Source of the DNA: Crossaster papposus
Taxonomy: Eukaryota > Echinodermata > Asteroidea > Velatida > Solasteridae
Direction of reading: 5' to 3'
DNA length: 64,000 nucleotides
NCBI GenBank assembly: GCA_037893245.1
Contig: JBAIAA010000352.1
Coordinates: forward strand, 2,914,001-2,978,000
Part shown: positions 2,733 through 64,000 of the stretch, piece after piece
Numbering within the stretch: position 1 is the stretch's first letter
Layout of the letters: each line of letters begins with the position of its first letter
Position numbers and translations under genes: made by a program
The notes under the pieces: model-generated
What the model was told of the DNA's origin: nothing
Database searches by the model: none
The model's input: the letters and a program-made list of their open reading frames with translations, nothing else

Positions 2733-4360
2733 TCGCGGTGAATGTGAGTACAGCGAGATGGAAAGTGCCTTTTTATAAAAATATTTTTAGGGTTGGGGAA
2801 AAAAAATAAATGTTGAGGCCTGTTTGTGTGTGCTAATTATTGCTAAATCTTTTATAATGCATCTAACACATAAATGCACAAACATCTGTATGTCTCAATT
2901 TTCGGCGCCCTGGACAGCATTCATATTTGACACGATTACCGGTAATATTTTTTTTATAATGGCGGTTCCCACGCAGGGTAATATGTAAACTTAATGAGTA
3001 TACGTAGTAACCATTATTGTGAATAGCAATTTTAAGTGTTTCGTTTGTTTTTGTAACAAATTTGTTTAGATTTTTTATTTATTTTTAACTTTTAGTGTCA
3101 TTAAAAAAAAAAATTGTATTGTTAGGCAGGCAAGTTCTTCCTACTCACTTCTATGACTTCATCTTTTGAAATATTGGCATGTTCCCAAATGACAATATAA
3201 TGAAATCCATCAATGCAATGTTGTTTTTAAAAACAATTTTGTTAAGTTCTTTACTAACTTATTTTACGCAATTATCAAAATTGATTGAAATTGAGTGATA
3301 TACATGGTTAGAAAGCCCAGAACGCAAGCTTTCATTTGGTATAATAATAGAGCATAGCCCCTTTTGTTCTGGAGATATGACATGTTTGCATATTGATTAC
3401 TTCCTTGGAGTTCAAATTACACAAATGAGAAAACAGACTTTGAAATAGCCGGCTTTGTTGTAGTAAAACAGAACGATGCACACAAAATGGGTTTTTTTGT
3501 GCACTTTATTCATCAAAAACAACATTTCTTTAAATGAAACCTGAAACTGTACGTATTACCCTAACTCCCTACACAACAAAGAAAGTTGGAGGATTTTGAA
3601 GGAATTGTATTGTTCAATAACAATGGTGAGGGAGTTAGGGTTAAAGATGTCATTCGTGACAACAAATGAAAATCACATTTTGATGAAATGTTTACCCTCT
3701 CAACATTGAGTGGGCCATTACATGATAATGCACAACGCGACTTAATATTAATTTTTTGGAGAGCCGCTCATATCTACGGTACATTACCCGCAAACTCTAG
3801 CATCAGAAATTGTTCATATCCAAACTTCCAAAGGGGTTATGGCTAAAACAAAAAGTATAAAAACAATTGCATGAAAGTCATTGCAGCCATGCCATAATGC
3901 ATACATAGCCAGTTTGAGTAAAAAAAAAAACCAACAAAATTAATTTTAGAAACCTTGTCTGGTTGTCTCAAATTACAATGGTTGTATTCATTATGCATAG
4001 TCTACAATTATCAATGCACCAATAAATATCAATGCAAAAATTATAAAGCGGATGAGCCGGAACACGTGGTTTATTAAACAGCTGCAACAAATATCCCCAC
4101 AACGACTGTTAGCCCTCTGGTCTTATTGCTGTATTAATTTGATGTACATGTAATGAATACAGCCTTATATTAATGTATAATTGGACTTCCTTAAACTTAT
4201 ACTGTGCCATTATCTCCATTTTGGCATTTTGTACATTCGTTTAAAGATGGACTACAACGGAATAATGATAAAGGCTGTGTTGCTGTTTTTTGTTCGAGAA
4301 ATGTATAATGATTACTAATATAATCATTAGTATTCAATAAATCTTGTTCCTTCATGCAAA
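2733..4360 (+). other. Probable 3' UTR and flank of the membrane protein gene
   Basis: AT-rich sequence without a convincing coding frame. Possible polyadenylation signals are AATAAA at about 2805 and at 4336-4341; the second is followed 16 nt later by an A-rich tract (from 4358), which would suit a transcript end. It contains part of a dispersed repeat (3290-3735) that recurs near 7200-7560 and 42840-43110, and the 82-bp micro-element at 3559. Confidence 0.4.
3559..3640. mobile_element. 82-bp TTAA micro-element, copy 1
   Basis: Ends CCCTAACTCCCT and AGGGAGTTAGGG, 82 bp in all, with TTAA at the right edge (3641-3644) and TTA at the left. It interrupts a dispersed repeat whose other copies read GTATTAAAGA without a break (near 43060; ATATTAAAGA near 7460), so the empty site is seen. 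Confidence 0.75.
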
Positions 4361-4451
4361 AAAACAAAAAAAAATTGATCGGCGTTCTACGACCCAGAAA
4401 AACTCAGTTTCAGCAAAAGCCCTTAACTCATGAATAATTCATACTTTGTGT

Positions 4452-4711
4452 GTGACGTACTACCCATGAAAACGCATACATATGGTGGCCCTGAAGGGAC
4501 TCCGCAGATCGCGAATATTGACGTCAAATTTGATGTCAATATTCGCGACTTTTGGGGAAAGTCGTGAATATCGACGTCAAATTTGACGTCAATATTCGCG
4601 ACTTTTTTGGAAAGTCGTGAATATTGACGTCAAATTTGACGTCGATATTCGCGATCTGCGGAGTCCCTTTAGGGCCACCATGTATGCGTTTTCATGGGTA
4701 GTACGTCATCA
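4452..4711. mobile_element. Palindromic element with CRE-like octamers
   Basis: A 260-bp fold-back. Outer arms pair GTGACGTACTACCCATGAAA with its complement near 4693-4710, and the middle holds three related units of TTGACGTCAAATTTGACGTCAA type separated by AAAGTCG. The perfect CREB/ATF octamer TGACGTCA occurs at 4519, 4584 and 4625. A fragment with the same outer words lies near 51470. Function of the octamers is not shown. Confidence 0.7.
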
Positions 4712-5332
4712 CTTTTCGCTGGTTTACAAGTCCGCTGGTACTATATCGTGGATTTCATTGTGGTTTTCAGTGGATCTTTGCCGGGAACCAGTACAGGGCG
4801 GGAAATTTCAAAATCGAAGAATCGAGGTCTAATTTTTTCGGTCAAATTGCAACAAAATTATTTAGAGAAAAACATGACCGTAACAATAAAGTGTTACCTG
4901 AACACAACATAAACAAGGTCCGATAATAAATTTAATGTGTGAGTTTTCGTTGTAGTCCATCTTTAATAAACAACAGATTGTACCAAAAATATGATCGTTT
5001 TTTTTAAAGTAAATATTGTTCAACTCAATCCTGTACATAAACAAGTGTGCAAAGTCTTATGTGTAAATAATTTTATACACAAATTTTGTATGCATACGTT
5101 CTTCGTTTACATTCAATGTAGATGTATGATACAAGATACACGTTGTGTGTGTCACATAAATTACACACAGCCCAAATGCAAAAATGTGGTTTCTTTACAC
5201 GTCCGCAAAAGGCGAACAATTTCCGGCTGGAATTGGGACTAAACCCAAACAGCCCAAGGTTTGGGGGTCAAAAAAACTGTCTTACAAATGTCCTACACAT
5301 ACATGTAAACATATACTGTACATTTGTTATTT

Positions 5333-5748
5333 GTGAGGGGTTCTGGCAAAATGAGACGGAACTGGGCAGAGGTTGAAATGAGAGTTATCGGTTATTAGAA
5401 AAGAGGAAACAATTCTCATTACAAATTACAATGTCATTTGTTGCACTTCCATCGGACATTCCGCTAAAATGTTTTGGCTGTTTAAAGTTCGCATTCATCA
5501 ACATTTGCAAAAGTAAATTGTTGAGAAAAAAGCCTTTGAAGTTTCGAGTTTTGTACATGCGATTATGAAGAAATGGCAATTGTTTTTCCTTAAAAACACT
5601 TTTTTTTACACTACTTTCATACTATTTCTTAACAAAATATAGTTAGTAGGCATACCAAAAATTTCAAATATCAATGAATCTGAAAATAAACAGTTTTGTC
5701 CACTATGCCCTGTGCCCAGTTATGCCTCATTTTGCCAGAACACCTCAC
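5333..5748. mobile_element. 416-bp inverted-repeat element with 11-bp target duplication
   Basis: Ends GTGAGGGGTTCTGGCAAAAT and ATTTTGCCAGAACACCTCAC. The flanks carry ATTTGTTATTT at 5322-5332 and 5749-5759. No coding frame. Loose ends of the same family lie near 10263-10312 and 37950. Confidence 0.7.
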
Positions 5749-5956
5749 ATTTGTTATTTTACGGTTTTACATAAAACAAAATTGCACTACTACTAAGGTC
5801 ATTAATCATTCTAGTTTTAACTAAAGCTAATTTCCAGTTTCATGATTTTAAATTCATGAGCTTCAGAAGTTTAATTGGCCCTTTTCGTAAAACTGGATAT
5901 AAGTACATACATGTACATGTCTAGTCACAGCTATTTTGTACCCTTAAATCTCTTAA

Positions 5957-6156
5957 CCAGTTCGCGCCGGGATTATTTTTAACGAAACTCAATCCGAGGC
6001 AGGTTCAGGCCGATGGTACTGGGAAGCACACCAACGCATTTCCAGCCTTGATCGCTGCTGACAGACATTTCCGGCCTTGCTCGTGACGTGTTATGCGTCA
6101 TCTGTTTTGAATCTGGAGAAAACTTTCTGTGTATCCTTTGATCCGGCGCAAACTGG
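5957..6156. mobile_element. Family B TTAA MITE, copy 3
   Basis: CCAGTTCGCGCCGG at the left and GCGCAAACTGG at the right, between TTAA at 5953-5956 and 6157-6160. Slightly shorter than other copies. Confidence 0.75.
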
Positions 6157-6862: not shown

Positions 6863-6937
6863 AAAGAAAAGAAAAAAGTGACCCGCTTCACTAAAATGGT
6901 TACATGTCCCAATTTAGTTATTGACATGGTTATAGTG

Positions 6938-7841: not shown

Positions 7842-8187
7842 AGGTACCGGTAGGATACACCATTTGCAGATATATCGAAAATATCTTACTCATTTCAAAG
7901 TAAATATTTATTTCAGGCATCCAGCAAAATTATTGTGCTGGATATCCTGTAATTATTTCGAAAAATATAATTTTATAAAGAAAATATTTGCAATCGAACC
8001 AAAGAAAACATAAGAATAACTGCTCGACGCTGGTTTTCTCGTCATCCATGATTGTAAAACTTCGGACAAGTCACTTCAACAATATTTACTATAATACTAT
8101 AATTACTACAGTATAATACAACCCCCCCCAAAAAAAAATCTACCCATTCATGATAATTCAAGCAATTACCAATGGTGTATCCTACCT
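7842..8187. mobile_element. TTAA-flanked MITE, family A (AGGTAGGATACACC ends), copy 1
   Basis: TTAA at 7838-7841 and 8188-8191. Ends AGGTACCGGTAGGATACACC and GGTGTATCCTACCT, with inner words shared by all copies (CATGATTGTAAAACTTCGGA, ATTATTTACTTTC-like blocks). Confidence 0.75.
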
Positions 8188-8814: not shown

Positions 8815-9347
8815 ACTGTTAAGAGTAGGATGCGCCGGTCTATTTTAAGATATCGAACATTTTTACTACCGAATTATTACAAAATATCTTATTATTTGAA
8901 AGTAAATAATGAGTCTAGGCATCCAACAAAATGATTTCACTAAATATCCTGCAATTGTTCGAACAATTGAATTTTATTTTTTAAAAATCACAATTGCCGG
9001 GAAAAACAAGAACTGCCCTATGCCCCACTTCTGTTGAAAACGAATGCTGTTTTTCTTGCTTTTTTCTCGGCATCGATGGTTGTAAAACATATTTACTATA
9101 AAATTAAACCCCCCAAATCAACCCATTCTTGATATTTCAAGCAAATACCAATGGTGTATCCTACCTTTAAATCCACCCATTCTTGACGATTCAAGCAAAT
9201 ACCAATGGTGTATCCTACCTTTAAATCCACCCATTCTTGACGATTCAAGCAATTACCAATGGTGTATCCTACATGTACCTTCAAATCCACCCATTCCTGA
9301 TGATTCAAGCAATTACCAATGGTGTATCCTACCTTTAAATAAAACCT
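8815..9347. mobile_element. Diverged family A element with tandemly amplified terminus
   Basis: The left part matches family A loosely (TAGGATGCGCCGG, AAATATCTTATTATTTGAAAG). The right end, about 57 bp from AAATCCACCCATTC to GTATCCTACCTTT, is repeated about four times in tandem at 9110-9345. Confidence 0.65.
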
Positions 9348-11092: not shown

Positions 11093-11550
11093 ATTTCATA
11101 GAGCTGCTAAGCACAAAAATTTGCTTAAGCATGACAATTTGTCCTTGGCAAAAACAAGGTTACAGACCAAATTTTCACCTGATCTTTATTGTTCTGGATT
11201 GATAATCGGCTGTTTTTTTGCTTAGCATGAAAATCACGTATAATTTTGGCTGGTAACCTGTTTTTAATGAGAAAGACTTTTTTGCTAAGCACATTGTTTT
11301 GCTTAGCAGCTCTATAAAATTGGCCCCAGTTCGCGTATATAAACGCAGTTTTCCCCAGATTCAAAACGAATGACGCATAAACACGTCACGAGCAAGGCTG
11401 GAAATGTCTGTCAGCAGCGAGCAAGGCCGGAAATGCATGGGTGTGCTTCCCAGTACTATCGACCTAAACCCGCCTCGGATCGAGTTTCGTTTAAAAAAAT
11501 ACTCCCGCACGTCAGCTTGGTGATGTTAAAATAATCCCGGCGCAAACTGG
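11093..11550. mobile_element. Family B TTAA MITE split by a CWG element
   Basis: The B left end (CCAG) is cut by the CWG element at 11097-11326 and resumes as CAGTTCGCGTATATAAACGC, running to CGCAAACTGG and TTAA at 11551-11554. Confidence 0.7.
11097..11326. mobile_element. Family CWG MITE nested in family B, CAG duplication
   Basis: GGGGCCAATTTCATAGAGCT and AGCTCTATAAAATTGGCCC ends; CAG at 11094-11096 and 11327-11329. The empty site is the normal B terminus AACCAGTTCGCG. Confidence 0.85.
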
Positions 11551-12895: not shown

Positions 12896-12898
12896 AAT

Positions 12899-13237: not shown

Positions 13238-13402
13238 CCAGTTCGCGCCGGGATAATTTTAACATCACCGAGCCGAGGGGCGGGATTTTTTAAAACAAAA
13301 CTCGATCCGAAGCACACCCACGCATTTCCGGCCTTGCTCGCTGCCGACAGACATTTCCAGCCTTGCTCGTGGCGTGTTTATGCGTCATCCGGCTCGAACT
13401 GG
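13238..13402. mobile_element. Family B TTAA MITE, internally shortened
   Basis: TTAA at 13234-13237 and 13403-13406 with CCAGTTCGCGCCGG and CTCGAACTGG ends. About 140 bp beyond the CENPQ stop codon, so probably in or next to its 3' UTR. Confidence 0.75.
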
Positions 13403-18100: not shown

Positions 18101-21100
18101 TGCGTATGTATTGACCGCCAATCGTGGTCGCCAGACAAAAGAATTGGGTACGTCCACGATTGACAAAACGTGTACAATTTTCAAATCGTGTACAAATCCT
18201 ATGGAGGTCATCCGAAAACGTTTGAGTACAAACAAAAGAAGGGAAGACGGTCGGACAATGCCCCGTCCACGATTGGCGGTGTTTACCAACCTACATGTTC
18301 CCTACTTACTCTTGCTGTAGCTGAACTTCACTGTCCAGACGTTCTGCTTGGTTGTTGGTTTCTACCAGGGCCACATCCAGGATATGCTGTAAAGACAAAC
18401 AAGAACACCACTGGGTCAAGGCGAGTTATTCGTACATTAAAGATGATTGGATTATTTTCTTTTTCCCACATTTATTGTTCATTTGAAGCAACAAAATTAT
18501 CAACATCTTAAGTTTCAGCTTAGTTGATACTACAAATTCAAAGGAAAGAAAACCCCCAAAACAAAGAGAAACCATATGCACAATTTAACAATAATATAAA
18601 AACATTTGCACACATCAAAACTACTGAATTATTACGAACTAACCAGAATTTAAGAACAGAATTTACTGTTTGGTTTTCCAGCATCTATGAACACAAAACA
18701 GGAAAAGCGAATAGTTTTTGAAAAGTAAAATATGATTTTGAAAGTCAACCACACTTTGAAAACCACCCTCGCTTTTTCCTGAACAATACCATTCATCAGG
18801 ATGAATACATGTACTTTCACAGAGTATTCAAAACTATTACCACTTTGGGCAAAGTTTTTCTGCAATCGGTAATTAGTCCATTTCTGGGGATTACGTTCTT
18901 CTCTTCCTGACCATTTGTGACCCAGCACGAGTAAATGAGACACTTTGCGGCAAAAATAAAAATTGAGATTTTGATTTCATCATTTAAAGCTTGTTTAACT
19001 TTAAATGATGAAATCAAAATCTCAAATTTTATTGTTGCCTCAAAGTGTCTCATTTACTCGTGCTGGGTCACATATAATCAATGAGTATATACTCACAGCT
19101 TGTTGCTCCATTTCTCTGTAGTTCGGTTGTCTCCGGTTAGGAACTTTGAGGGATACAAAACTCTTCATAAGCCTGCAAGATCAAAACAATGAAATTCAGT
19201 ACCGTACTGCACCCGATTTCATGTTTGGCTGCTTTATAGCTCAACGGTAAATCCACTGCAAGATTGTTCAGGATTCAGGCAGTGGTCACCAGTAACAATT
19301 ATTGGAAGATTTTTCAGGATTCAGGCAGTGGTCACCAGTAACATTTATTGGAAGATTTTTCAGGATTCAGGCAGTGGTCACCAGTAACAATTATTGGAAG
19401 ATTTTGCAGGATTCAGGCAGCGGTGACCAGTAATAAATATTGGAGAATTTTGCAGAATTCAGATTACATGGAGTTTTAACACTTTGGAATTGCAGGATTT
19501 TGCAGGATTCAGGTTATGTGTAAGAAAAATAGGGTAGGGAGTTAGGGTTAAGCTTAATTAAAATTCAAATAAGTTAAGAGGGCCTAATATTTCGATCTTA
19601 AAGGTAGTATACACCATTTGCAGATATTGCAAAAAATTTACTACCGAATTACTAAGAAATATCTTACTCATTTGAAAGTAAATAATGATTCTAGGCATTC
19701 AGCAAAAGGATTGCGCTAGATATCCTGTAGTTATTCCGAAAAGTAGAATTTTATAAAGAAAAATTCGTGATCGCCGGCCGGCGATCGCGAAAAAACAAAG
19801 ATAACATAAGAATAACTGCTCGACGCCGGTTGAAAACAAACGCTGTTTTTCGTGTTTTTCTCGGCATCCATGATTGTAAAACTTCTGACAGGTCAGTTAA
19901 ACGATATTTACTATAAAATACAACCCCCCTTAATCTACCTATTCATGATAATTCGAGCAATTACCAATGGTGTATCCTACCTTTAACAAGATCTTCTTCA
20001 GAGACATAATGGCTGTGTACAAGAAACAAACATATATAGGGCAACATACAGCATGATGCACATTAAAATTCAACGGCATTTACTGCAATATTCAAGGTTT
20101 ATTTGAATTGACTACGGTGAATGTTGCATTTATTACTTTCTCTGTATTTAGGTTTGTTTATTCAAGTTTTACCACATAAAACCAGCTAGGAAAATTATAA
20201 TTTTATGACAACCAAAAGACAAATCGTAGCTTATAAAGTGTTTCAAACCGTTTTTAAAACAAGTGGTTACTCTAAATAAAATTAAATTTAAAATTAAAAA
20301 AAAAATCCTAGTTTGCAGCATTTGTAATCCATATACTGGATTATGGGTTCTGACTAGCTCCCCTGTGGTAAAATTGTAATCTATTGGTTGCAGGTTTATA
20401 ACCTGGGGCTAATTTCACGGAGCTGCTAAGCACACAAATTTGCTTAGCATGAACATTTGTCCTTGGTAAAAACAAGGTTACAGACCGAATTTTCAAGTGA
20501 TCTTTATTGTTTTTGATTGATAATCAGCTGGTTTTTTGCTTAGCATAAAAAACACGTAGAATTTTGGCTGATACTTGTTTTTAATGAGCAAGACGTTTTT
20601 GTGCTAAGCAAATTGTTGTGCTTAGCAGCTCCGTGAAATTGGCCCCAGTTCCAGTAAATTTCTGTTTTCAGCATTAAAAAGAAAGAAGACCTGATGAATT
20701 CAAACGAAGAGTATAGCCCTCAAATTTAAGATTGATCATTTTTTAAACGAGTTCCAACCTTGTTTTTAAATTGTTCAGGTGATCCTGGATGTCGTTGTAA
20801 GCTGAACCGCTCGTCTCGTTCAGAGTCACACTGCAGAAGTAAAAAAAAAATGAAACATTTTAACGACAGAGTCGTTTAGAAATGTGCAAGTAACTTTTTC
20901 AACTTTTCATTGTTGAATATTAGTGTTGGATATATCTCTGACTGTGGGGAGTTATAGAGCAAATAATGTGTTCACATTTCGGCGACAAAGTCGTGCGATT
21001 TATCGTGCAACTTTTTTTAATTCAAGTGATTTTGTACCGCGTCGAAAAATGTTGCATACGTAAGTCCACAAAGACCCTACAGCTCCAAACTAGTTATTTG

Positions 21101-30900: not shown

Positions 30901-33900
30901 TTTTTGCTTCCCCTGATCAGTCCGCAAAATGTCTAAGTTGACAGTTCGTTTTTATTCCTCAAAATGACGAATTTTATGGTAACGAATATACATGATGTAC
31001 ATCGATCGTACAAGGTCCATAAATCAAACGAGGGGGCGAGTCGGTCAGGGGGCGAGTTGGTCAGGAGGCGAGTCGGCCAGGGGGCGAGTCGGTCAGGGGG
31101 CGAGTTAGTAAGGGGCGAGTCGGTCAGGGGGCGAGTCGGTCAGAGGGCGAGTCGGTCAGGGGGCGAGTTGATAAGGGGCGAGTAGGTAAGGGGCGAGTCG
31201 GTCAGGGGGCGAGTTGACCTACAATCGTCTGGAGCATTGAATTCGTAATCTGTAGGTAAAAGCTACAAGTTGTGGGTTCGAATTTGGCCCGGGACTACGG
31301 TGTGCGTGCCCTTGGGCAAGGCACTTTGCCACTTTAATATTGCTTCTCCCCACCCAGGAGTAAATGGGTACCTGTGATGGCAGATATGGTTATTGTGGTT
31401 GATTTAGCTGCTTTGCGCTGAAATGGCAGCATTGAGCTGTATACTCCCCAGGGCCAGGGAGCTGAGATGAGATTTGAGATGAAGGTTTCATGGGCCCAAT
31501 GACTGGGGTAATAATGTGAGCGTGCCTTAAGTACCAGTCTTGGTAGATATGTGCGCTAAATAATAAGCCAAAAACTCGCCATTAATTTTTTTTAAATTTG
31601 TTGTTAACCAGTTTGCGCCGGATGACGTATATAAACCAAAAGTTTTCCCCAGATTCAAAACGGATGACGCATAAACACGCCACGAGCAAGGCCAGAAATG
31701 TCTGTCAGCAGCGAGCAAGGCTGGAAATGCGTGGGTGTGCCTTCCTGTACTATCTGCCTGAACACGCTTCGGATCGAGTTTTGTTAAAAAAATCCCGCGC
31801 GTCGGCTCGGTGATGTTAAAATAATCCCGGCGCGAACTGGAGCAAGTTCGGGCGCGAACTATAGTTAACCATTAGTCAGTCTCTGCTTTACCAATGCGCA
31901 TGCTCAAATGCAGTTCGCTCGAACGGCTCTTGTCGAACTATTGTTGAAAAGATGGCAACCGCTTTGTTTACATTTGCGACCTGAATAAAATGGGTATTGC
32001 CACTATTCTTCCACGCATATAAGTAGGATAAGCCATGGAGGTGTTTCCTACCTCCATGAATAAGCCATAACGTTAGTCATGTTGGTCCAAAAACAAGACA
32101 AAAAATTACATTAGGCTCGCCAGATTTTCACTTAACGTTACTCAGCCTTTCCCCTCCATCCGACTACTGACATCCTCTTTTTTCTACGTCACTGGTTCTT
32201 TCCATGTTTTCCTACCGGTATGAACTGAGGCTACTGTCAACCAGCGGCAACCGTGCCTCGGGGTCTGGTTCCAAATAGTCGACTAGATAGTTTAACCATT
32301 CTGCGTTCGAGTGACGTTAGTCGAACTATGGTTAACTATAGTTCGCGCCCGAACTTGCTCCTGGTTAAAGCAGATATTTGACCTTTGATGCTAATGACCG
32401 CATTATTGTTTTCTTTCTCTCAGGGCCCTCCAGGCACGGGCAAAACCACCAGCATCCTGTGTTTATGCCACGCACTGCTAGGGCCCAACTATAAGGACGC
32501 CGTGTTGGAGTTGAATGCATCCAATGATAGGCAAGCTATTGAATCCAGCAATATCTAATCTCCAGATTTTTGTTCCGAGATTTGACTGAGCATTTTAGGA
32601 GGATAAAAAATGTTTTCTTGACCCTAGATGTCTCTATTGGGGCGTCCCTTTTTATTTCTGTGGTTCTCATTTCTGACGGACCCTATTTTGGGCTCCTGAC
32701 CCAAGAAAACAAAACTTTGTAATTTCCGCAGACCCTATCTGGAACCCCATTCTCAAACAAATATATTAGCAAATAAAAGAAATGAATAGCTAATTTACAA
32801 AATCCGACTCTGTGCTATTGGAAAACTATTGAAAATGATTAGTTTATACTCAAAATATAGCACCTGACAACCTGTCGAATCTAATCCCAGATGAGGAGAT
32901 GCATTGTGTTGACTCTCATCGTATACTGTAGATGTCTATAGTATACCTTACTGGTATGTCGTAATTGCCACTACAGCCAAAACGTTCGTGATCTGCAACC
33001 TAAGTCAACGGCCTCTCACTAAAAATGGTTTGATTATTTTTATGCGGTGATATCAACTCACGATAAACTCACTGCAATAAACAGAACTGGAGTTAACCAG
33101 TTCGCGCCGGATGACGTATATAATCGCAAAGTTTTCCCCAGATTCAAAACGGATGATGCACAAACACGTCACGAGCAAGGCCTGAAATGTCTGTCAGCAG
33201 CGAGCAAGGCCTGGAAATGCGTGGGTGTGCTTCCCGGTACTATCAGCCTGAACCCGCCTTGGATCGAGCTTCGTAAAAAATAATCCTGCGCGTCGGCTCT
33301 GTGATGTTAAAATAATCATTTAATTTAGCCATCTAACCAGGTGGAACTGCACATTTTTATCTTTCAAATGTTTTTTTTTTTTTTGACTAACCGACCAACC
33401 AAACTTCAAAGGCAAAAAAATATAAGAACCTCAAAAATAAAAAGGGACGCCCTTTATAGACTATTACCAAGTATTAAATAATAATCTCATTTTTATTTTG
33501 CATACAATAAAAAGAGAAAAACTTGAAAAGCAAAAACAGCTAAAGTTCAATATGATTTTGCACACACTCACACTCTTCAAAATATCAAAAATAGATTTGT
33601 AGGGGTGGGGGGCGGGGGTTAGGCTGTATTTGTTTTTGTGGCTGTTGTTTTACAGTGGGATCCCGTGTGATTTTCCCCTTTTTGCAGAGGTATTGATGTC
33701 GTCAGGAATAAGATCAAAACGTTTGCGCAGAAGAAGGTCACGCTACCCAAAGGTCGGCAAAAGGTCATCATTCTGGATGAGGCTGACAGGTACGTGTCGG
33801 GTCGGGTCGGATTGGGTGTTAGTTGGCCGTTCTGTTTCTGGCTGCCAAGAAACGCAGTCAGTGAGCTACCTAGAGAAACTCATTCAGCCATACTCTTTAT

Positions 33901-36900
33901 TTTGCCAAAACCAATGATTTTTATGAACAACATTTAAGGGAGGATACACCATGGGTAATTGCTTGAATTATCAGGAATGGGTGGATGTAAAGGTAGAATA
34001 CACCATTGGTAATTGCTTGAATTATCAGGAATGGGTGGATTTCAAGGTAGGATACACCATTGGTAATTGCTTGAATTATCAGGAATGGGTGGATGTAAAG
34101 GTAGGATACACCATTGGTAATTGCTTGAATTATAAGGAATGGGTGAATGTAAAGGTAGAATACACCATTGGTAATTGCTTGAATTATCAGGAATAGGTGA
34201 ATGTAAAGGTAGGATACATCATTGGTAAAATTGCTTGAATTATCAGGAATGGGTGGATGTAAAGGTAGAATACACCATGGGTAATTGCTTAAATGATCAG
34301 GAATGGGTGGATTTAAGGGGTTGTATTTTATAGTAAATATCGTAAACTGACCTGTTCAAAGTTTTACAATCATGGACGCCGAGAAAGCAAGAAAAACGGT
34401 GTTCATTTTTAACCAGCGTCGGGCAGGTGTTATTGTTTTTCTTTTCTTTTTTTTCGCAATCGCCGTCTGGCGATCGGGATTTGAAAAGAGAAAAGATGAC
34501 CAACAACCTTTGAAATCTTAAAGATTGCTCAATAACAAAAAGTTCACACCCAACTTGTACAAAAGTAGGCTGAAAAAAGTGTACCTTTGAAAGTTGTGCC
34601 TTAACATTTTGTTTAAAAATTATACAAAATATTAAAAAAATTGTCGATGTTCAGTGAACAAATGAACTTATGTTCAAATGTAATGTATTGGTCTACTTAT
34701 AGATTTTTTGTCCATAAATTCATTGTTATTGGCAAAATAACAAGTTTCTCTTTTGATTAGTGGTTATTTGAAAGAAAGGTTTCCATTTTTTTTTTGATTG
34801 TACAAAAAATTACACAGAATTTAGATTGGGTTACCACGTCCCCCGTAGCCTTGTGTGCATTTATCTACCGCGCTTGTCCCAAGAGACAAATAGTAGAATC
34901 TTGTTGTGCACTTGGGTATTTGGAATACTGAACTGTCGTATTCCTTGTTTTTTTTGTCTGTCATTTCCCCACCCAATCACGTACAGCATGACAAGCGGCG
35001 CCCAGCAGGCCCTCCGGCGCACCATGGAGATCTACTCCAAGACCACCCGCTTCGCCCTGGCCTGCAACGCCTCCAACAAGATCATCGAGCCCATCCAGTC
35101 CCGCTGCGCCGTGCTGCGGTACTCGCGGCTGACGGACAAGCAGCTCCTACGGCGACTGATGGAGATTGGGGAGCAGGAAGGGATCGAGTGTACCGATGAC
35201 GGGCTGGAGGCTGTCATCTACACCGCGCAGGGCGACATGAGACAGGTAACGTTTGCTGACCGGGTCGATTGACGAGAGTCGGTGGACGAGAGTCGGTGGA
35301 CGAGAGTCGGTGGACGAGAGTCGGTGGACGAAAGTCGGTGGACGAGAGTCGGTGGACGAGAGTCGGTGGACGAGGGTGTCGAGATGGACGAGGGTGTCGA
35401 GATGGACGAGGGTGTCGAGATGGACGAGGGTGTCGAGATGGACGAGGGTGTCGAGATGGACGAGGGTGTCGAGATGGACGAGGGTGTCGAGATGGACGAG
35501 GGTGTCGAGATGGACGAGGGTGTCGAGATGGACGAGGGTGTCGAGATGGACGAGGGTGTCGAGATGGACGAGGGTGTCGAGATGGACGAGGGTGTCGAGA
35601 TGGACGAGGGTGTCGAGATGGACGAGGGTGTCGAGATGGACGAGGGTGTCGAGATGGACGAGGGTGTCGAGATGGACGAGGGTGTCGAGATGGACGAGGG
35701 TGTCGAGATGGACGAGGGTGTCGAGATGGACGAGGGTGTCGAGATGGACGAGGGTGTCGAGATGGACGAGGGTGTCAAGATGGACGAGGGTGTCGAGATG
35801 GACGAGGGTGTCGAGATGGACGAGGGTGTCGAGATGGACGAGGGTGTCGAGATGGACGAGGGTGTCGAGATGGACGAGGGTGTCGAGATGGACGAGAGTC
35901 GATTCGTCGATGGACGAGAGTCGATTCGTCGATGGACGAGAGTCGATTCGTCGATGGACGAGAGTCGATTCGTCGATGGACGAGAGTCGATTCGTCGATG
36001 GACGAGAGTCGATTCGTCGATGGACGAGAGTCGATTCGTCGAATGACGAGAGTCGATTCGTCGAATGACGAGAGTCGATTCGTCGAATGACGAGAGTCGA
36101 TTCGTCGAATGACGAGAGTCGATTCGTCGAATGACGAGAGTCGATTCGTCAAATGACGAGAGACTATGCAATCACTACCTGTGTACGTAGTCTGTCCGTA
36201 CAGATGTATCAATTTGGTTACAGTTTAGAAAAAAATGTTCTTAACCAGTTCGCGCCGGGATTATTTTAACATCGCCGAGCCGACAGGCGGGATTATTTTT
36301 AACGAAACTCGATCCGAAGCGTGTTCAGGCTGATAGTGTCGGGAAGCACACCCACGCATTTCCGGCCTTGCGCCCTGCTGACATACATTTCCGAACTTGA
36401 ACTTGGCGTGTTTATGCGTCATCCGTTTTGAGTTTGGGAAAATTTTTGCGTTTATATACGTCATCCGGCGCGAACTGGTTAATGCAAACTTGAAGACTAA
36501 TTGCAATCAATCTTAGGCCATGCATGCAATTTTGTAACCTTTTTATGGACAATTACTGAGGTTAAAGGCCATTTGAGGTCAAGTTTTAAAATAGGCTTGA
36601 ATTTTTAAACTGGTATCTCATTTGGAAACTTGGAGTTCAATTGCAATCAAACTTGGGTCATGCGTGCAATATTGTAACAGTTATATGATGCTTGTGTGAG
36701 GTACTATTAAGGTCAAAGGCCATTTGAGGTCAAGCTGTACAATAGGGTAATCACAAAAATAGACGAGACACATGGTTTTTAGAACCATTCCCTCTTTAAT
36801 AACCTACTTCAGATTTATTGTATTGTTGTTCCTTTAATTGGCGAACTGGCAAAAATACATTTTTTTGTAAACATATCTATTACCTTTGATGTCAGTTTTG

Positions 36901-39900: not shown

Positions 39901-42614
39901 GGTTGCATAGCAACATTGTTGTCAAGGAAACCACTGTTAAATTGCTTTTTCTCTTGATAAATTTGTTTTATTCCCTGACGCGACTGAGGGGGGGGGGGGG
40001 GGGGGGGGGGGGGGGTACTTTCGATATATTTATTTCTCGGATGAAGTGCATTTGCAAATAGAATAAATCCGCTGTGGACGGTGAATGAACTTCAAAAATT
40101 TCTCCAACCGATTTCAGGGGTAAATAATAATACGATTTATTCTTGGTTTTCTGATATCTAATAAAATCGACATACACCCGACCATTAAATTACGAAGCTA
40201 GCAAAATAAATTCCAAGTTTATAAACATTTATTTCTGGTTTCATTGTTTTTAAAAAGGAAGAGAAAAAGAATAAACGGAACCTTAACACCTAATATTTTG
40301 AGCTCCTAAACATTTTTCTAACAGTTTTAAGGGGGAAATTTAATACGATTTATTTTCCGTTTTTTTTGTATTTAACAAAACGATCTATTTCGTGGAAATT
40401 GAGAGAGCTTGTTACATGTTTTAATTTATAATGGTTCCGTGGTATAATTTTACATAATAAACGCTTTATAGTGCAAGAGGAATAAAGTAAAATGACGGGA
40501 GACTTTTTCGGGAGTATTTTCCGAATATATTCCAATAGGGGCAAGAAATTCAGACAATGATTGACAGCTGACCTACAAAATGTACTCATTGTAGCAAGCG
40601 GGCCAACATGTGGCAGACCATTACTTTGGAATTTCAATAGGCTGGGAAATGTCACTTTGTGGCATACAATTACACCCAATGAAAAGAAGAGATTGTTAGA
40701 AGGAAGAACAAGATTGGACGGTTTTTTTATGGGATGGTTTATTTTTGATGTGGGTAGATACAGGGGGGATGGAGAAGACACAGTTAATAACGAAACCACG
40801 CTATATATTTAACACTATTGTAATACATTGCCTTTGAGTGCAGTTCAGGGACGCGGCCGGCCGCGGTAGCTTAAAAGGTGAAAAAAAAACCAGGCGGACC
40901 AATGAAAATGCTGGCGGGCTAGTAACAAGTCAACACAACTGGCCCGGCCGGCTAGTGAAAACAAAAGTTAAGGGGAAACCCTGTCTAGGTATTGTTGTCC
41001 CCCGATTGTTCCACACATAAAGTGGTTATGTTGATGTTATTTCAATGAATTAAGCCCAACGGGGTATTTATTATTTGGACTTCCCTTCCCTTTATCGAGT
41101 TTTTGCGCTGTGAATTCGCAAAAGTAGAACACATTTCTCAAGCAAAATGTCGTCTCATGACATATGAAATTTGTTTTGCATTTGCATTCTCGTGAAGTAT
41201 GTATGTATGAATCCGCCTTTAAATCATCAGCGAATTTGAACTAATTACTTGTAAAGGTTGTAAAGGTACGTACGTGCACAATTTATTTGGTGGTGCATTC
41301 ATTATGTACACGTAAATTCACTGAGAAGTTGTTTTTATTCAACTCGTACTACGTTGATTGTCTCGGCATTTCTAGTATTATAGACCCAAAAAATGCCGCG
41401 AAATACTTGTGGTTTGGCAGGCCGGTATTTCGCGGACTGTCGGCCCCGTGATGAACCATTCATATTTAAATTAGCCTTCTGGGCGCTGAGAGTAGCCCGG
41501 CGCCTCCGCACAAAGACCGGAATATTCATGTTCTTTGATATGTAAATGACCGTTCCAGACGGGGTTATACCGGGTTGTCAAGGGGTCTTTTGTTAACTTT
41601 GGTCCTGGGTATCCCCCAGACTTCCCGGGGCGCCGCACAGTCGGTCTTTAATGAGACCGCGCCTAACTAGTTCACGCATCGGATGATGTGTATAATATAC
41701 ATGCAAAGTTTTCCGGAATTCAAAACGGATGACAGATTAAACACGTCACGAGCAAGGCCAGAAATATGTTAGCAACCGGCTCGCAGCGAAGTATCAGGAT
41801 GTGTGCTACCCACAGATGCTGGCCTAAACCTAAAATTCGCACCTGGACCCGGTCAATGTGGCCAATAAAAAAGGTTTCTTTGTCGATCCAAGAAAACGAT
41901 CTAAATTTTGAGCGAGGCAGCGTGAACATGAAGAAAAATTACCGATCAATTCTTGAATACTTCGAGAGTATGTACGTTAACGTTAACATGGTTAAGTTGG
42001 TAGCGAAACAAATGTTGTTTTCTAAAAATCATTTATCTTGTGCCTCAAAATTTTTCAGAATGGCTGCCATTGCATTGTATTCTACCTATATTTGTATTTA
42101 ACGAGTTCGCACCGGAGGACGTTTATACATGCAAAGTTTTCCCCAGATTCAAAACAGATGTGGTATAAACACGTCTCGAGCAACGCTGGAAATGACTGAT
42201 AGCAGCGATCGAGGCTGGAAATGCGTGGGTGTGCTTCCCGGTACCATCAGCCTGAACCCGCCTCGGCTCGAGTTTTGTTGGAAATAATCCCGCGCCTCGG
42301 CCCGGTGATGTTAAAATAATCTCGGCACGAACTGGTTAAAGGGCAAAATCTGCGATGGCCCTGTAGCCAAATATTGACCGAGTGTCAAATTTCATGCTTT
42401 TATCATCAAGCAAACAATCCTATCATAGTTTTGCACCATTCTGCCATCTTGGTCGTCGTTTTGCAATGTAGCCATTTTCTTGGTTTTTTTTATGTCACAG
42501 GAGATTGGCTTCACACACTTAAGGATCGCAGAGGGAGTAAACTCGCTGCTGCAACTTGGCGGTTTGCTTGCAAGGCTGTGCCAGAAAGGAATGTTACCCA
42601 CTGAAGAATCTTGA
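27971..42614 (+). CDS. RFC2: Replication factor C subunit 2 (AAA+ clamp-loader subunit), complete 8-exon gene
   Basis: RFC2 is one of the small ATPase subunits of replication factor C, which loads PCNA onto primed DNA; it also serves in checkpoint RFC-like complexes. Exons: 27971-28098, 28926-29037, 32424-32530, 33688-33789, 34987-35245, 37046-37111, 38084-38278, 42501-42614 (stop TGA 42612). They sum to 1083 nt, 360 aa, against 354 in human. Visible motifs: RFC box with YELPWVEKYRP (39-49), Walker A GPPGTGKT (81-88), Walker B ILDEAD (144-149), sensor-1 region ACNAS (175-179), SRC motif (188-190, arginine finger that acts in trans), and the C-terminal collar helices ending LLARLCQK. Every splice phase agrees. 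Intron 3 starts with GC (AG|GCAAGC), the accepted minor GC-AG class. Only the first 38 residues are unlike human. Divergent from CENPQ. Intron 5 starts with a large minisatellite and intron 7 holds a 3.25-kb transposon. Confidence 0.96.
28430..28616. mobile_element. Inverted-repeat MITE in RFC2 intron 1
   Basis: AAGGTGTTTCACGGTAATAT at the left pairs with ATATTACCGTGAAACACCTT at the right. No clear target duplication beyond a base or two. Confidence 0.75.
28650..28843. mobile_element. 194-bp MITE with 9-bp duplication, RFC2 intron 1
   Basis: Ends TAGCCCAGGTTGGAC and GTCCAACCTGGGCTA, plus inner pairing CAGGGTATCAATGT. CCCTCAATT stands at 28641-28649 and 28844-28852. The 9-bp duplication resembles Mutator-type elements (inference). 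It ends about 80 bp before RFC2 exon 2. Confidence 0.78.
29118..29560 (-). mobile_element. 3' end of a CR1/L2-like LINE
   Basis: The minus strand encodes the reverse transcriptase C-terminus: [13 protein letters not shown], then [23 protein letters not shown] and LKTYLF, ending at 29238. After the stop come AAGCGCAGTATAAATGCC and a short ATT-rich tail, as in CR1/L2 elements. Only this 3' part is present. It lies in RFC2 intron 2. Confidence 0.85.
29562..31560 (+). mobile_element. tRNA-derived SINE split by a 1.6-kb element
   Basis: The 5' part (about 29562-29618) and the 3' part (from 31235) join as GTGGTCTCGTGGTCTGGAGC. The B box is GGGTTCGAATTTGG near 31275, followed by CCCTTGGGCAAGGCACTTT, a common SINE body word. 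The 3' end is not sharply defined. Confidence 0.6.
29619..31226. mobile_element. 1.6-kb element with minisatellite terminal repeats and 8-bp duplication
   Basis: Left end GGTGTCAGGTCAACTCGCC, right-end complement GATTGTAGGTCAACTCGCC. Both ends contain arrays of about 15 bp (GACTCGCCCCCTGACC type; 29636-29790 and, inverted, 31030-31216). GTCTGGAG flanks it at 29611-29618 and 31227-31234. Inner sequence has a poly-G run and no recognised protein. The 8-bp duplication is hAT-like. Confidence 0.75.
31618..32364. mobile_element. Family B TTAA MITE split by a 521-bp element
   Basis: TTAA at 31614-31617 and 32365-32368. B sequence runs to GCGCGAACTG, then the insertion, then the last bases CTGG. 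Confidence 0.8.
31840..32360. mobile_element. 521-bp inverted-repeat element with CTG duplication
   Basis: Ends GAGCAAGTTCGGGCGCGAAC and GTTCGCGCCCGAACTTGCTC, with pairing on through TATAGTTAACC. CTG at 31837-31839 and 32361-32363. No coding frame. RFC2 intron 2, just upstream of exon 3. Confidence 0.8.
33097..33318. mobile_element. Family B element, right end lost
   Basis: TTAA at 33093-33096 and CCAGTTCGCGCCGG; the match stops after GATGTTAAAATAATC. RFC2 intron 3. Confidence 0.65.
33938..34310. repeat. 54-bp tandem array made of a family A terminus
   Basis: Seven units of GTAGGATACACCATTGGTAA, TTGCTTGAATTATCAGGAAT and GGGTGGATGTAAAG. The last unit runs into a family A body (34310-34525: TTACAATCATGGACGCCG, GCAATCGCCGTC). 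RFC2 intron 4. Confidence 0.85.
35271..36163. repeat. Composite minisatellite in RFC2 intron 5
   Basis: Three zones in a row: 14-bp GAGAGTCGGTGGAC (about 7 copies to 35370), 18-bp GAGGGTGTCGAGATGGAC (about 29 copies to 35890), and 22-bp GAGAGTCGATTCGTCGATGG-AC with a later variant CGAATGAC (about 13 copies). The units share GAGAGTCG and GATGGAC words, so they probably derive from one another. The array starts about 25 nt after the exon 5 donor. Unit lengths explain the long frames on both strands. Confidence 0.95.
36245..36478. mobile_element. Family B TTAA MITE in RFC2 intron 5
   Basis: TTAA at 36241-36244 and 36479-36482; ends CCAGTTCGCGCCGG and GGCGCGAACTGG. One of the best preserved copies. 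The rest of intron 5 (36483-37045) has no recognised element. Confidence 0.85.
37112..38083. other. RFC2 intron 6, mostly unassigned
   Basis: AT-rich. Holds a loose terminus GTGACCTGTCACCACAATATG near 37369 (related to the element at 43117) and GTGAGGTGTTCTGGCAAAAT near 37947 (related to the element at 5333). Confidence 0.5.
38412..41663. mobile_element. 3.25-kb PIF/Harbinger-like element without recognised transposase
   Basis: Ends GGCGCGGTCTCGTTAAAGAC and GTCTTTAATGAGACCGCGCC (one mismatch), flanked by TAA at 38409-38411 and 41664-41666. TAA is the usual TWA-type target of PIF/Harbinger. Inner open frames (for example 40799-40350 minus, 149 codons) show no known domain. It contains a 27-base poly-G run at 39989-40015. 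It fills most of RFC2 intron 7. Confidence 0.75.
41664..41850. mobile_element. Family B element, left end adjoining the 3.25-kb element
   Basis: TAACTAGTTCACGCATCGG and AAAACGGATGACAGATTAAA match family B; the right end has decayed. Its original TTAA target is completed by the TT before 38410, so the large element landed in this TTAA. Confidence 0.6.
42102..42335. mobile_element. Family B TTAA MITE, RFC2 intron 7
   Basis: TTAA at 42098-42101 and 42336-42339; ends CGAGTTCGCACCGG and GCACGAACTGG. About 165 bp before the last RFC2 exon. Confidence 0.78.
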
Positions 42615-45010: not shown

Positions 45011-45392
45011 AGGGATCGTATACGTTTGGTAATTGAAACCCACTGTTTGTTTCAATCCTATATAGATATATACCATAAAACTATCCTGTACAAATTTCAT
45101 TTTAAAAGGTGGTAGCGAGTTGAGATATTGCCAAAAAATCTGGAGCGGTTATGTCCATGCAGGAAGAATAATCTGCATTGGAATACACATTCTGAGAAAC
45201 TTCACTGCAGTAACGCTTCTCAGATTCAAATTTTTGGGGATAAAAAGTGATATCTTTTTCTATAAACGCAGTACTCGAAGTGAACAGTTTCAAAAAATGA
45301 ATTATACTATCCAAAGCTGCTGTACTTCTTTAACCAAGTAAGTTTTTATTGCCATTAATTTTTGAAGTAATTACCAAACGTATACGATTCCT
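45011..45392. mobile_element. TTAA-flanked MITE, family C (AGGGATCGTATACG ends), copy 1
   Basis: TTAA at 45007-45010 and 45393-45396; ends AGGGATCGTATACGTTTGGT and ACCAAACGTATACGATTCCT. A second copy is at 55993. It ends about 100 bp beyond the PGRP stop, so it may lie in that gene's 3' UTR. Confidence 0.82.
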
Positions 45393-53825: not shown

Positions 53826-53890
53826 ATAAATCAAATAAGTTAAGAGGGCCTAATATTTCGATCTTAACAAGATCTTCTTCAGAGACATGT
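53826..53890 (-). mobile_element. Penelope-like 3' end, uninterrupted
   Basis: AGTTAAGAGGGCCTAATATT, TCGATCTTAACAAGATC and TTCTTCAGAGACATG: the unbroken version of the site occupied at 19602. Confidence 0.65.
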
Positions 53891-54699: not shown

Positions 54700-54703
54700 T
54701 TAA

Positions 54704-54785
54704 CCCTAACTCCCTCACCATTGTTATTAAACAATACAATTCCTTCAAAATCCTCCAACTTCCTTTGTTGTGTAGGGAGTTAGGG
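54704..54785. mobile_element. 82-bp TTAA micro-element, copy 2
   Basis: CCCTAACTCCCT and AGGGAGTTAGGG ends, TTAA at 54700-54703 and 54786-54789. Same length as the copy at 3559, in the opposite orientation. Its left TTAA is also the right TTAA of the family A element. Confidence 0.8.
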
Positions 54786-55992: not shown

Positions 55993-56375
55993 AGGGATCG
56001 TAAACGTTTGGTAATTGGAACCCACTGTTTGTTTCAACCCTATATAGTTACAGATACATAAAACTAACCTGTACTAAATTTCATTTCAAAAGGTGCTAGC
56101 GATTTTGAGATATTGCCGAGAATCTGGAGCGGTTATGTCCACGCAGGAAGAATAATATGCATTGGAATACACGATCTGAGAAACTTCACTGCAGTAACGC
56201 TTCTCAGATTCAAATTTTTTGGAATAAAAAGTGATATCTTTTTCCATAACCGCAGTACTTCAAAGTGAAAAGTTTCTAAAAATGCATAATACTATCCAAA
56301 ACTGCTGTACTTCTTACCAAGTAAGTTTTTATTGCCATACATTTTTGGAGTAATTACCAAACGTATACGATCCCT
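55993..56375. mobile_element. Family C TTAA MITE, copy 2
   Basis: TTAA at 55989-55992 and 56376-56379; ends AGGGATCGTAAACGTTTGGT and ACCAAACGTATACGATCCCT. Very similar to the copy at 45011 throughout. Confidence 0.85.
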
Positions 56376-60974: not shown

Positions 60975-61095
60975 TATTAATCACTCTGTTTAATACCGCT
61001 TGGAGTCTGGGTGCTGATAATTACCCTCGCCTTCGGCTCGGGTAATTATCAGCACCCAGACTCCAAGCGGTATTAAACAGAGTGATTAAAACCTC
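60975..61095. mobile_element. Palindromic element, arms about 58 bp
   Basis: TAATCACTCTGTTTAATACC pairs with GGTATTAAACAGAGTGATTA; pairing runs through GCACCCAGACTCC to the loop CTCGCCTTCGGCTCG. Confidence 0.8.
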
Positions 61096-61370
61096 TCCAA
61101 CACACATTTATTCCCTTATTAGCGTATGATGCATTTTCTTCCTATTGTATAGTGTATGGGTTGTTTTCATCCGTTCGAGTATCTGTCCCAGCATTATTTT
61201 GTGTGTGTTGTAGGTTTTTAGGAGGGGTAAAACAACGGAAATACGGATCCTGTTTGGCGCCATCTATTGACTGAACAAAAACAATCTAACGAATCGTGCT
61301 AACAGAAAATTAAAGTCTATGCAGTTCAATTGAAAGTAATGTGGATTTTGAAGAGCTTTAGTGATTTTAA

Positions 61371-61757
61371 GGTAGGATACACAATTTGCAGATATCGAAA
61401 AAAGTTTTACTACCGAATTATTAAGAAATGTCCTACTTATTTGAAAGTAAATAATGATTGTAGGCGCGCAGCAAAATGTTTGCGCTAGATATCTTATAAT
61501 TATTGTTCCAGTAAAAAATTGAAGTTTATTTAAAAAAAAAAAAATACGATCGCCGGACGGCGATCGCGAAAAAAACAAGAACAACATAAGAACTACTGCC
61601 AGACGCCGGTTGAAAACGAACGCCGTCTTTCTTGCTTTCCTCATCAACCATGATTGTAAAACTTCGAAGAGGTCAGTTAAACGAAATTTACTATAAAATA
61701 CAATCCCCCAAATCCAACCATTCATGATAATTCATGCAATTACCAATGGTGTATCTT
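61371..61757. mobile_element. Family A MITE
   Basis: TTAA at 61367-61370; GGTAGGATACACAATTTGCA at the left, CCAATGGTGTATC at the right, with GATCGCCGGACGGCGATCGC in the middle. Confidence 0.75.
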
Positions 61758-61759
61758 AA

Positions 61760-62815: not shown

Positions 62816-62821
62816 GCTTAA

Positions 62822-63203
62822 AGGTAGGATCGGCCTACACCATTTGCAGATATCGAAAATATTTAATACCGAATTATTAAGAAATATCTTGCTCAATTGA
62901 AAGTAAATAATGATTCTAGGCATTCAGCAAAAGGATTGCGCTAGATATCCTGTAATTATTCCAAAACAATTTGAATTTTATAAAGAAAAATTTGCGATCG
63001 CCGGACGGCGATCGCGAAAAAACAAAGATAACATAAGAATAACGGCTCGACCCCGGTTGAAAACAAACGCTGTTTTTCGTGCTTTTCTAGGCATCCATGA
63101 TTGTAAAACTTCGGAAAAGTCATTTAAACGATATTTACTATGAAATACAACCCCCTAAATCTACCCATTCATGATAATTCAAGCAATTACCAATGGTGTA
63201 TAT
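62822..63203. mobile_element. Family A MITE
   Basis: TTAA at 62818-62821, AGGTAGGATCGGCCTACACC at the left; right end CCAATGGTGTATA decayed. Middle has GCGATCGCCGGACGGCGATC. Confidence 0.75.
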
Positions 63204-63385
63204 AGGCCTATAAGGTTCTTTTTTTTCTCGTGATCGCCGTCCGGAATTTCGGAACAATTACAGGATATATAGCGCAATTATTTTGGTGGATGCCTAGAAT
63301 AATTATTTACTTTTAAATTAGTAAGATATTTCTAACAAATTCGATATTAAAATGTTTTGATATTTTCAAATGGCGTACCTTACCC
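63204..63385. mobile_element. Partial family A element, inverted
   Basis: GTGATCGCCGTCCGG, GGTGGATGCCTAGAATAATT and AAATGGCGTACCTTACCC are the complement of family A's other half. Confidence 0.6.
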
Positions 63386-63389
63386 TTAA

Positions 63390-63873
63390 AGGGGTACCAT
63401 GCCCTGGAATAGCCCAATTGGGCTACAAAACGCGTTTTGAACTAATGGTGTTCATCGGAAAAATAATTTAAAAGTAGGATATAAACATTCGCACAACCAT
63501 CCTTTAAAAACTGGGCGCTTTTGTGTTATTCCTATGTATAGAACGAGTTTCTGGGGTAACAAAAGTGACCCCCTTAACTCGAGCTATGGGTGTAGTCTGA
63601 TTCCAGCCGGAAATTGTTTGCCTTTTGCTGGCATGTAAGAAACCACATTTTCTGCATTGTTATCGTGTGCAATTTATGGGAAAGATACAACGTGTATCGT
63701 ACATTGAATGAGAACGACAGGAAAAACGTATGCGTACACGCCGTCTGATGTAAAACAACCGTGTTTGCGATAAGACATTAGGTTGGTTTCCTTTCAATTA
63801 AAATGTTTGAAATAGGATAAGTAAACAATCCAAAACATGATATTTTGGGGGGATTTCAGGACATAGTGCCCCT
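63390..63873. mobile_element. TTAA-flanked element, family D (AGGGGTACCATG ends)
   Basis: TTAA at 63386-63389 and 63874-63877; AGGGGTACCATGCCCTGG at the left, CAGGACATAGTGCCCCT at the right. One full copy; its inner words AGTAAACAATCCAAAACATG recur at 51415. Confidence 0.72.
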
Positions 63874-64000
63874 TTAATCAACAGAATTGTACTCTTCGGC
63901 ATGCATTAGTAAGTTAATGTAAGCTTTCTGAGCTCTGTGGGTGGTCCTTCATGACAATTTGTAAGACACTAAAAAAAGGGGGGGGGTGGAAGAAGGCTAT

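What the first reader, a model, noticed from the sequence alone, without database searches (positions are those of the whole stretch)
3559..63877. Five unrelated miniature families share a TTAA target in one 64-kb window
Seen directly: families A (AGGTAGGATACACC), B (CCAGTTCGCGCC), C (AGGGATCGTATACG), D (AGGGGTACCATG) and an 82-bp micro-element all end exactly at TTAA on both sides in their well-preserved copies. At two sites an uninterrupted sequence with a single TTAA, or the unsplit host repeat, is also present (19602 against 53860; 3559 against 43060 and 7460). TTAA duplication is the known signature of piggyBac transposases. Inference: one or a few piggyBac-type transposases have moved several unrelated non-autonomous families here.
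Basis: partly seen in the sequence, partly recalled or inferred. Interest (0 to 1): 0.7.

Follow-up and report, generated by a model that had tools for sequence, protein, structure and literature searches.

The report
Two transposon superfamilies sharing TTAA sites
Several families of short mobile DNA in this animal genome insert at the same four letters, TTAA, but they seem to be of two kinds, one descended from piggyBac transposons and the other with the ends of Kolobok transposons, so a shared target does not mean one shared enzyme.

Summary
Families A, B, C, D and the 82-bp E end at TTAA, and unoccupied copies of two insertion sites carry one TTAA at the junction. In the genome, TTAA precedes 80 of 100 listed A 5' ends and 87 of 100 listed C ends; chance gives about 0.7.

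The inference is half right. B is piggyBac: 10 of 10 copies compared match both ends of a 3.8-kb TTAA-bounded element with an uninterrupted piggyBac transposase frame. E has piggyBac-type ends, with no coding partner sought. A, C and D begin AGG and end CCT, which fits the published RR...YY ends of Kolobok, a superfamily that also duplicates TTAA. All five piggyBac terminus types I could read here begin with C.

The window also holds a sixth, unlisted TTAA family (4245-4962). It shares both ends with a THAP-encoding element bounded by TTAA and AGATGGACTACA, as expected of Kolobok.

No coding partner was found for A, C or D in a limited search, so their assignment rests on ends and target. New families of known kinds, two of them (A, C) in the thousands of copies; modest interest.

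The parts
19602..19982 (+). Family A copy (381 bp), TTAA both sides; empty sites at 53828-53888 and 46593-46706
7848..8187 (+). Family A copy, TTAA on right side only
61370..61758 (+). Family A copy, 82% identical to the 19602 copy
62836..63201 (+). Family A copy, 92% identical to the 19602 copy, ends eroded
33937..34340 (+). 54-bp tandem array built from family A's own terminus
45011..45392 (+). Family C copy (382 bp), TTAA both sides
55993..56375 (+). Family C copy (383 bp), TTAA both sides; query
63390..63873 (+). Family D copy (484 bp, imperfect terminal repeats), TTAA both sides
36245..36478 (+). Family B copy (234 bp, perfect 12-bp terminal repeats), TTAA both sides
5957..6156 (+). Family B copy, TTAA both sides
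13238..13402 (+). Family B copy (165 bp), TTAA both sides
42102..42335 (-). Family B copy, TTAA both sides
1383..1658 (+). Diverged family B copy, TTAA both sides
1949..2179 (+). Family B copy, TTAA on left side only
11326..11550 (-). Family B copy, TTAA on right side only
31608..31840 (-). Family B copy, TTAA on left side only
33097..33325 (-). Family B copy, TTAA on left side, other end eroded
3559..3640 (+). Micro-element E copy 1 (82 bp); left flank reads ATTA, right TTAA; unsplit host repeat at 7460 and 43060
54704..54785 (-). Micro-element E copy 2 (97.5% identical), TTAA both sides; one TTAA also abuts the 5' end of a diverged family A copy (by eye)
4245..4962 (-). Sixth TTAA family, not in the finding: 718 bp, perfect 12-bp ends AGATGGACTACA, shares both ends with the THAP-encoding element in L070

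Best explanation
The window carries at least six non-autonomous cut-and-paste families that all insert at TTAA and duplicate it, served by two different transposase superfamilies. B, and probably E, are piggyBac derivatives with pyrimidine-first ends. A, C, D and the newly seen 4245-4962 family are Kolobok-type, with ends 5'-AG...CT-3'. In each case an enzyme encoded elsewhere would recognise the terminal repeats, excise the element and join it into a TTAA, leaving a TTAA on each side. Shown: TTAA duplication with empty sites for A and E (E with one duplicate short by a base); B's match at both ends to a piggyBac-encoding element; the sixth family's match at both ends to a THAP-encoding TTAA element. 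Inferred: the Kolobok enzyme for A, C, D and 4245-4962, the piggyBac enzyme for E, and the chemistry itself.
For: TTAA next to 80 of 100 A 5' ends and 87 of 100 C ends listed genome-wide. Two empty A sites. Ten of 10 B copies compared match the L069 element at both ends, over 26-57 bp at one end and 31-94 bp at the other (best E 5e-31); the element is 3,773 bp with TTAA and CCAGTTCGCGCC at both ends, and its 560-aa stop-to-stop frame matches PF13843 (2.5e-84) and PF13842 (5.6e-7). piggyBac termini readable here start CCAG, CCAC, CCCT, CCCT, CACT. Kolobok is described by TTAA plus RR...YY (PMC9587614), T2-MITEs by TTAA plus AGGRR, and a Xenopus Kolobok (Tr2) has left end AGGGGAACTAT (PMC6004289), the same 11 letters as 5 of 100 listed D ends (most of the 11 were fixed by my pattern). 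Window 4245-4962 matches L070 at 99.6% over 275 bp and 96.5% over 229 bp; L070 has TTAA, AGATGGACTACA ends and a THAP ORF. PF20478 (P2X7 C-terminal domain, KolX-like by PMC9587614) has 112 matches; I noted 11 of them, by eye, convergent with a THAP match 2.5-7 kb away.
Against: No element encoding a transposase was found with A, C or D ends. All 20 solo C ends read were ordinary C copies. Of 202 A/C-like ends with divergent interiors, 100 were listed and 8 read: 5 A, 1 C, 2 without a clear match; the one followed further (1.6 kb) showed no long frame. By eye, none of the 100 listed A/C-like places and none of the 100 listed D places lies within 10 kb of the 112 PF20478 matches. A reads AGGTA, one letter off AGGRR. 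B reads CCAG, not the usual CC[C/T]T. With looser matching only 4 of 9 A 5' ends and 13 of 35 A 3' ends have TTAA. The L070 THAP ORF is not itself a transposase, and THAP also occurs here in an element of another kind (L071; ISL2EU, name recalled). Ends of two Kol0 candidates gave no termini.
Confidence: 0.78

Rival explanations
1. All five families are moved by one or a few piggyBac transposases.
For: Shared TTAA target; piggyBac is abundant and recent here (116 matches, all that were scored of 1,336 candidates; one family of 11 fetched copies 99.9% identical over 3.4 kb); B is piggyBac.
Against: A, C and D begin AGG, whereas the five piggyBac terminus types read here all begin with C; piggyBac elements generally carry CC[C/T]T (PMC2872659, passages). 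Not every piggyBac family here was read.
Confidence: 0.1
2. A and C, whose coding partner was not found, are moved by a third TTAA-specific transposase (Sola3 is a recalled candidate) or by a lineage not yet described.
For: No coding partner in the limited search; A and C share their own subterminal TTGGTAATT; A reads AGGTA rather than AGGRR.
Against: TTAA plus RR...YY ends fits Kolobok; THAP-linked TTAA elements with AG ends exist here. No Sola profile was searched.
Confidence: 0.1
3. TTAA at the ends is a chance result of A+T-rich flanks or of how the copies were cut out.
For: Window is 59% A+T; control 4-mers also give inverted pairs: 0 to 10 filtered pairs for 15 controls, AATT the most, nearly all from one repeat family.
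Against: 80 and 87 of 100 against 0.7 expected; reversed-pattern controls 0; the 11 filtered TTAA pairs come from six families plus one unclassified hairpin; two empty A sites.
Confidence: 0.02

Closest known systems
T2-MITEs of Xenopus (Kolobok superfamily; Xmix/Xstir)
   Same: TTAA target, terminal AGGRR in C and D; Xmix is a predominant MITE with an amplified internal segment (PMC6004289, passages), much as A carries 54-bp arrays
   Different: A reads AGGTA and so is not filed as T2; A's array repeats its own terminus; no sequence comparison beyond the terminal letters printed in the paper
Kolobok, Kol0 lineage (THAP transposase plus KolX)
   Same: TTAA, RR...YY ends; THAP and PF20478 matches pair convergently here
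   Different: No Kol0 element with A, C or D ends was found, and no Kol0 termini were read here
KolobokP multimers (PMC9587614)
   Same: PF20700 frames in tandem at about 3.9-6.4 kb spacing
   Different: Terminal direct repeats and the His-Me nuclease were not verified; KolobokP target duplications are reported as 3-5 bp; not linked to families A-E
piggyBac MITEs, e.g. coral CMITEs (PMC2872659, passages)
   Same: B: TTAA and ends shared with a piggyBac element; E: TTAA with CCCT ends
   Different: B starts CCAG rather than CC[C/T]T; no coding partner sought for E

Membership tests
piggyBac (family B) | TTAA target duplication | tested here: met
   10 of 14 two-ended copies TTAA on both sides, 4 of 14 on one side; 26 of 31 single ends
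piggyBac (family B) | Ends shared with an element encoding a piggyBac transposase | tested here: met
   10 of 10 B copies compared match both ends of the L069 element; PF13843 at 2.5e-84 and PF13842
piggyBac (family B) | Terminal CC[C/T]T, which piggyBac elements generally carry (PMC2872659) | tested here: not met
   B and its coding partner read CCAG; another recent piggyBac family here reads CCAC. The paper gives the motif as general, not as a definition; B is filed as a derivative of that specific piggyBac element on its shared ends
piggyBac (E) | TTAA and CC[C/T]T ends | tested here: met
   CCCTAACTCCC at both ends; TTAA both sides in 1 of 2 copies, one side in the other
piggyBac (E) | Coding partner with the same ends | not tested
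   None of the piggyBac termini read matches; no dedicated search was run
piggyBac (A, C, D) | Pyrimidine-first ends (CC[C/T]T in general) | tested here: not met
   Ends AGGTA, AGGGA, AGGGG
Kolobok (A, C, D) | TTAA target duplication | tested here: met
   A 80 of 100, C 87 of 100; D 1 of 1 in window; 216 TTAA-plus-end matches genome-wide against 0 for the control
Kolobok (A, C, D) | Termini RR...YY | tested here: met
   AG...CT in all three
T2-MITE (A) | Terminal AGGRR | tested here: not met
   A reads AGGTA; A is therefore called Kolobok-type, not T2
T2-MITE (C, D) | Terminal AGGRR | tested here: met
   AGGGA and AGGGG
Kolobok (A, C, D) | Ends shared with an element encoding a Kolobok transposase | tested here: inconclusive
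   None found; 20 of 20 solo C ends were C copies, 8 of 202 variant A/C ends read
Kolobok (4245-4962) | TTAA, RR...YY ends, ends shared with a THAP-encoding element | tested here: met
Kolobok (4245-4962) | Kolobok catalytic domain in the partner element | tested here: inconclusive
   L070 codes for THAP only; no full-length partner was fetched

The most novel reading that the evidence does not exclude
Because each insertion at TTAA leaves two TTAAs, piggyBac and Kolobok elements would seed landing sites for one another, and the two unrelated superfamilies would amplify together as strings of elements joined by shared TTAAs. Seen here: E copy 2 next to an A copy, and a piggyBac element followed by two B copies in L011. 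Whether this exceeds chance was not tested.
Probability: 0.12. Interest if true: 0.5.

Novelty: new member of a known kind. Interest (0 to 1): 0.3.

Why it matters
Here terminal letters and, for B, a coding partner split six TTAA families in one window into two superfamilies. One Kolobok-type family, A, leaves 33,599 exact terminal motifs in a 1-Gb genome, tandem arrays included. It is a practical caution for repeat annotation and a place to study two enzymes using one target.

Tried and rejected
Chance and A+T bias: rejected. PF20700 transposases as partners of A, C and D: among L039-L068 (30 of 114 scored matches, many of them neighbouring array units), only L039 holds an A, B, C or D end within 1 mismatch, and there the sequence matches A over 291 bp up to the edge of the locus, so it is an A copy. 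Solo C ends as ends of long coding elements: 20 of 20 were C copies. Divergent A/C ends: 8 of 202 read, none coding; L103/L104 followed for 1.6 kb, longest frame 125 aa. L071 (THAP, 528 aa) has no TTAA-bounded inverted ends in the 3.9 kb read and looks like ISL2EU (recalled). Two Kol0 candidates (C1100, C771): no termini in the 700-base ends. TTAAAGGAAACATGTAAT beside C771 proved to be part of some other, strand-clustered repeat, 1,186 matches with up to 1 mismatch. A terminus search limited to ends beginning with C gave nothing for six loci, L024, L025, L030, L009, L015 and L037. A paper search for 'TTAAAGGRR' gave none. Of 62 window ORFs of 100 aa or more, 10 were scanned and one gave a weak Pfam match.
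Full report
WHAT WAS CLAIMED. Five unrelated miniature families end at TTAA in one 64-kb window, and piggyBac transposases moved them. The window is part of a 1.02-Gb, 1,841-contig genome that is not named.

CHECK OF THE OBSERVATION. Counting copies in the window and in loci L001-L071 whose two ends are each within 2 mismatches of the motif (E: 1), TTAA is on both sides in A 2 of 4, B 10 of 14, C 2 of 2, D 1 of 1 and E 1 of 2; each remaining copy has TTAA on one side; more eroded copies fall outside this count. Single ends with up to 4 mismatches give B 26 of 31, C 4 of 4, D 3 of 3, A 5' 4 of 9 and A 3' 13 of 35, the last with many ends inside tandem arrays. TTAA occurs 455 times in the window, so about 0.7 in 100 ends would have it by chance. 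In the genome, the A 5' end has 9,003 exact pattern matches, and 80 of the 100 listed are preceded by TTAA. The C end has 6,618, and 87 of the 100 listed are preceded by TTAA. D looked like a single copy with a long exact pattern, but a degenerate TTAA-plus-end pattern has 216 matches and 0 for the reversed control, so it is a real family.

EMPTY SITES. The A copy at 19602-19982 sits in a repeat whose unoccupied copies lie at 53828-53888 and 46593-46706; in each the matches to the left and right flank overlap by four bases, the TTAA. E at 3559-3640 splits a repeat that is whole at 7460 and 43060; its left duplicate has lost a base and reads TTA. Its second copy, 54704-54785, has TTAA on both sides.

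B IS PIGGYBAC. A search with PF13843 gave 116 matches, all that were scored of 1,336 candidates. One, fetched as L069, lies in a 3,773-bp element bounded by TTAA|CCAGTTCGCGCC and GGCGCGAACTGG|TTAA, with a 560-aa stop-to-stop frame matching PF13843 (2.5e-84) and the zinc finger PF13842 (5.6e-7). The 10 B copies compared match it in the right orientation over 26-57 bp at one end and 31-94 bp at the other. B is thus most simply an internally deleted derivative of this piggyBac family.

A, C AND D DO NOT HAVE PIGGYBAC ENDS. The other piggyBac families whose ends could be read start CCCTTTGCATGC, CCCTTTCAATACC, CACTTTGACTGC and CCACTTGGCGCC, the last at one end only; all begin with C. Three of the 30 fetched piggyBac loci, and the families not fetched, were not read. 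A, C and D start AGG and end CCT. The literature states that Kolobok also makes TTAA duplications and differs from piggyBac by RR...YY termini (PMC9587614; sections 3, 10, 12, 16 and 20 read, section 4 in part), and that T2-MITEs are TTAA plus AGGRR, presumed Kolobok derivatives (PMC6004289, passages only). C and D fit AGGRR; A, AGGTA, is one letter off and is not filed as T2. Five of 100 listed D ends read AGGGGAACTAT, the same 11 letters as the left end of the Xenopus Kolobok Tr2 in that paper's Table 5; most of those letters were fixed by my pattern. TTGGTAATT lies at the same offset inside one A end and both C ends, so A and C are not independent of each other.

KOLOBOK-TYPE ELEMENTS ARE PRESENT. 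It matches both ends of a 1,256-bp element, L070, at 99.6% over 275 bp and 96.5% over 229 bp. L070 is bounded by TTAA and carries a THAP domain in a 224-aa stop-to-stop frame. THAP is a usual part of Kolobok transposases (PMC6004289). PF20478, the P2X7 C-terminal domain to which KolX is similar (PMC9587614), has 112 matches; I noted 11 by eye that face a THAP match 2.5-7 kb away. PF20700, which Pfam calls Mutator-like, forms long tandem arrays that I read as KolobokP-like; that is inference, and the C/DxxH motif in its ORF is shared by five superfamilies.

WHAT IS MISSING. I found no coding element with A, C or D ends. Twenty of 20 solo C ends were ordinary copies; 8 of 202 divergent A/C-like ends were read and none coded; of the 100 listed A/C-like and 100 listed D places, none lies within 10 kb of a PF20478 match, judged by eye. 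The search was limited by the letters allowed. E's coding partner was not sought.

HOW IT WORKS. Most likely ordinary cut-and-paste in trans: a piggyBac enzyme for B and E, Kolobok enzymes for A, C, D and 4245-4962, each joining its element into TTAA and leaving two TTAAs. Because each insertion doubles the target, elements can sit side by side. E copy 2 shares a TTAA with a diverged A copy (by eye), and in L011 a piggyBac element, a B copy and a second B copy are separated only by TTAA.

VERDICT. Observation confirmed; interpretation right for B, plausible for E, and not supported for A, C and D. New families of known kinds.

Noticed in passing
window 4245-4962: Sixth TTAA family with perfect ends AGATGGACTACA, sharing both ends with a THAP-encoding element (L070); its middle holds several inverted copies of a GACGTCAA-type motif.
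   Followed up: yes
window 33937-34340 and 9121-9334; G000:C1:805330-806207 and 957825-959682: 54-bp tandem arrays whose unit is the terminal stretch of family A, recalling the Xmix/Xstir case in Xenopus. Exact A motifs total 33,599, well above the 9,003 A 5' ends.
   Followed up: partly
G000:C82:920263-1029990; also C530, C887, C293, C616, C113: Tandem arrays of PF20700 transposase frames at about 3.9-6.4 kb spacing, 29 listed in C82, resembling KolobokP multimers.
   Followed up: no
G000:C80, C863, C669, C336, C430, C592: piggyBac transposase frames repeated at about 11-12 kb spacing, eight in a row in C863.
   Followed up: no
L011:878-3836: A piggyBac element and two family B copies in a row, separated only by single TTAAs.
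   Followed up: partly
window 54704-54785: E copy 2 shares its TTAA with the 5' end of a diverged family A copy (by eye).
   Followed up: partly
window 60977-61089: A 105-bp hairpin-like pair TCACTCTGTTTA bounded by TTAA, not assigned to any family.
   Followed up: no
window 22735-23850, 35150-36216, 12859-13141: Long minisatellites with 11-, 18/22- and 10-bp units.
   Followed up: no
window 34772-35269: ORF with a weak match to the RFC1-like AAA+ lid domain (PF25361, E 0.00024, below the curated cut-off), so a replication factor gene may lie here.
   Followed up: no
L024-L034: piggyBac family with 572-aa frames, 11 copies about 99.9% identical over 3.4 kb, left end CCACTTGGCGCC beside TTAA in 8 of 8 printed: a recent burst, or recent duplication.
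   Followed up: partly
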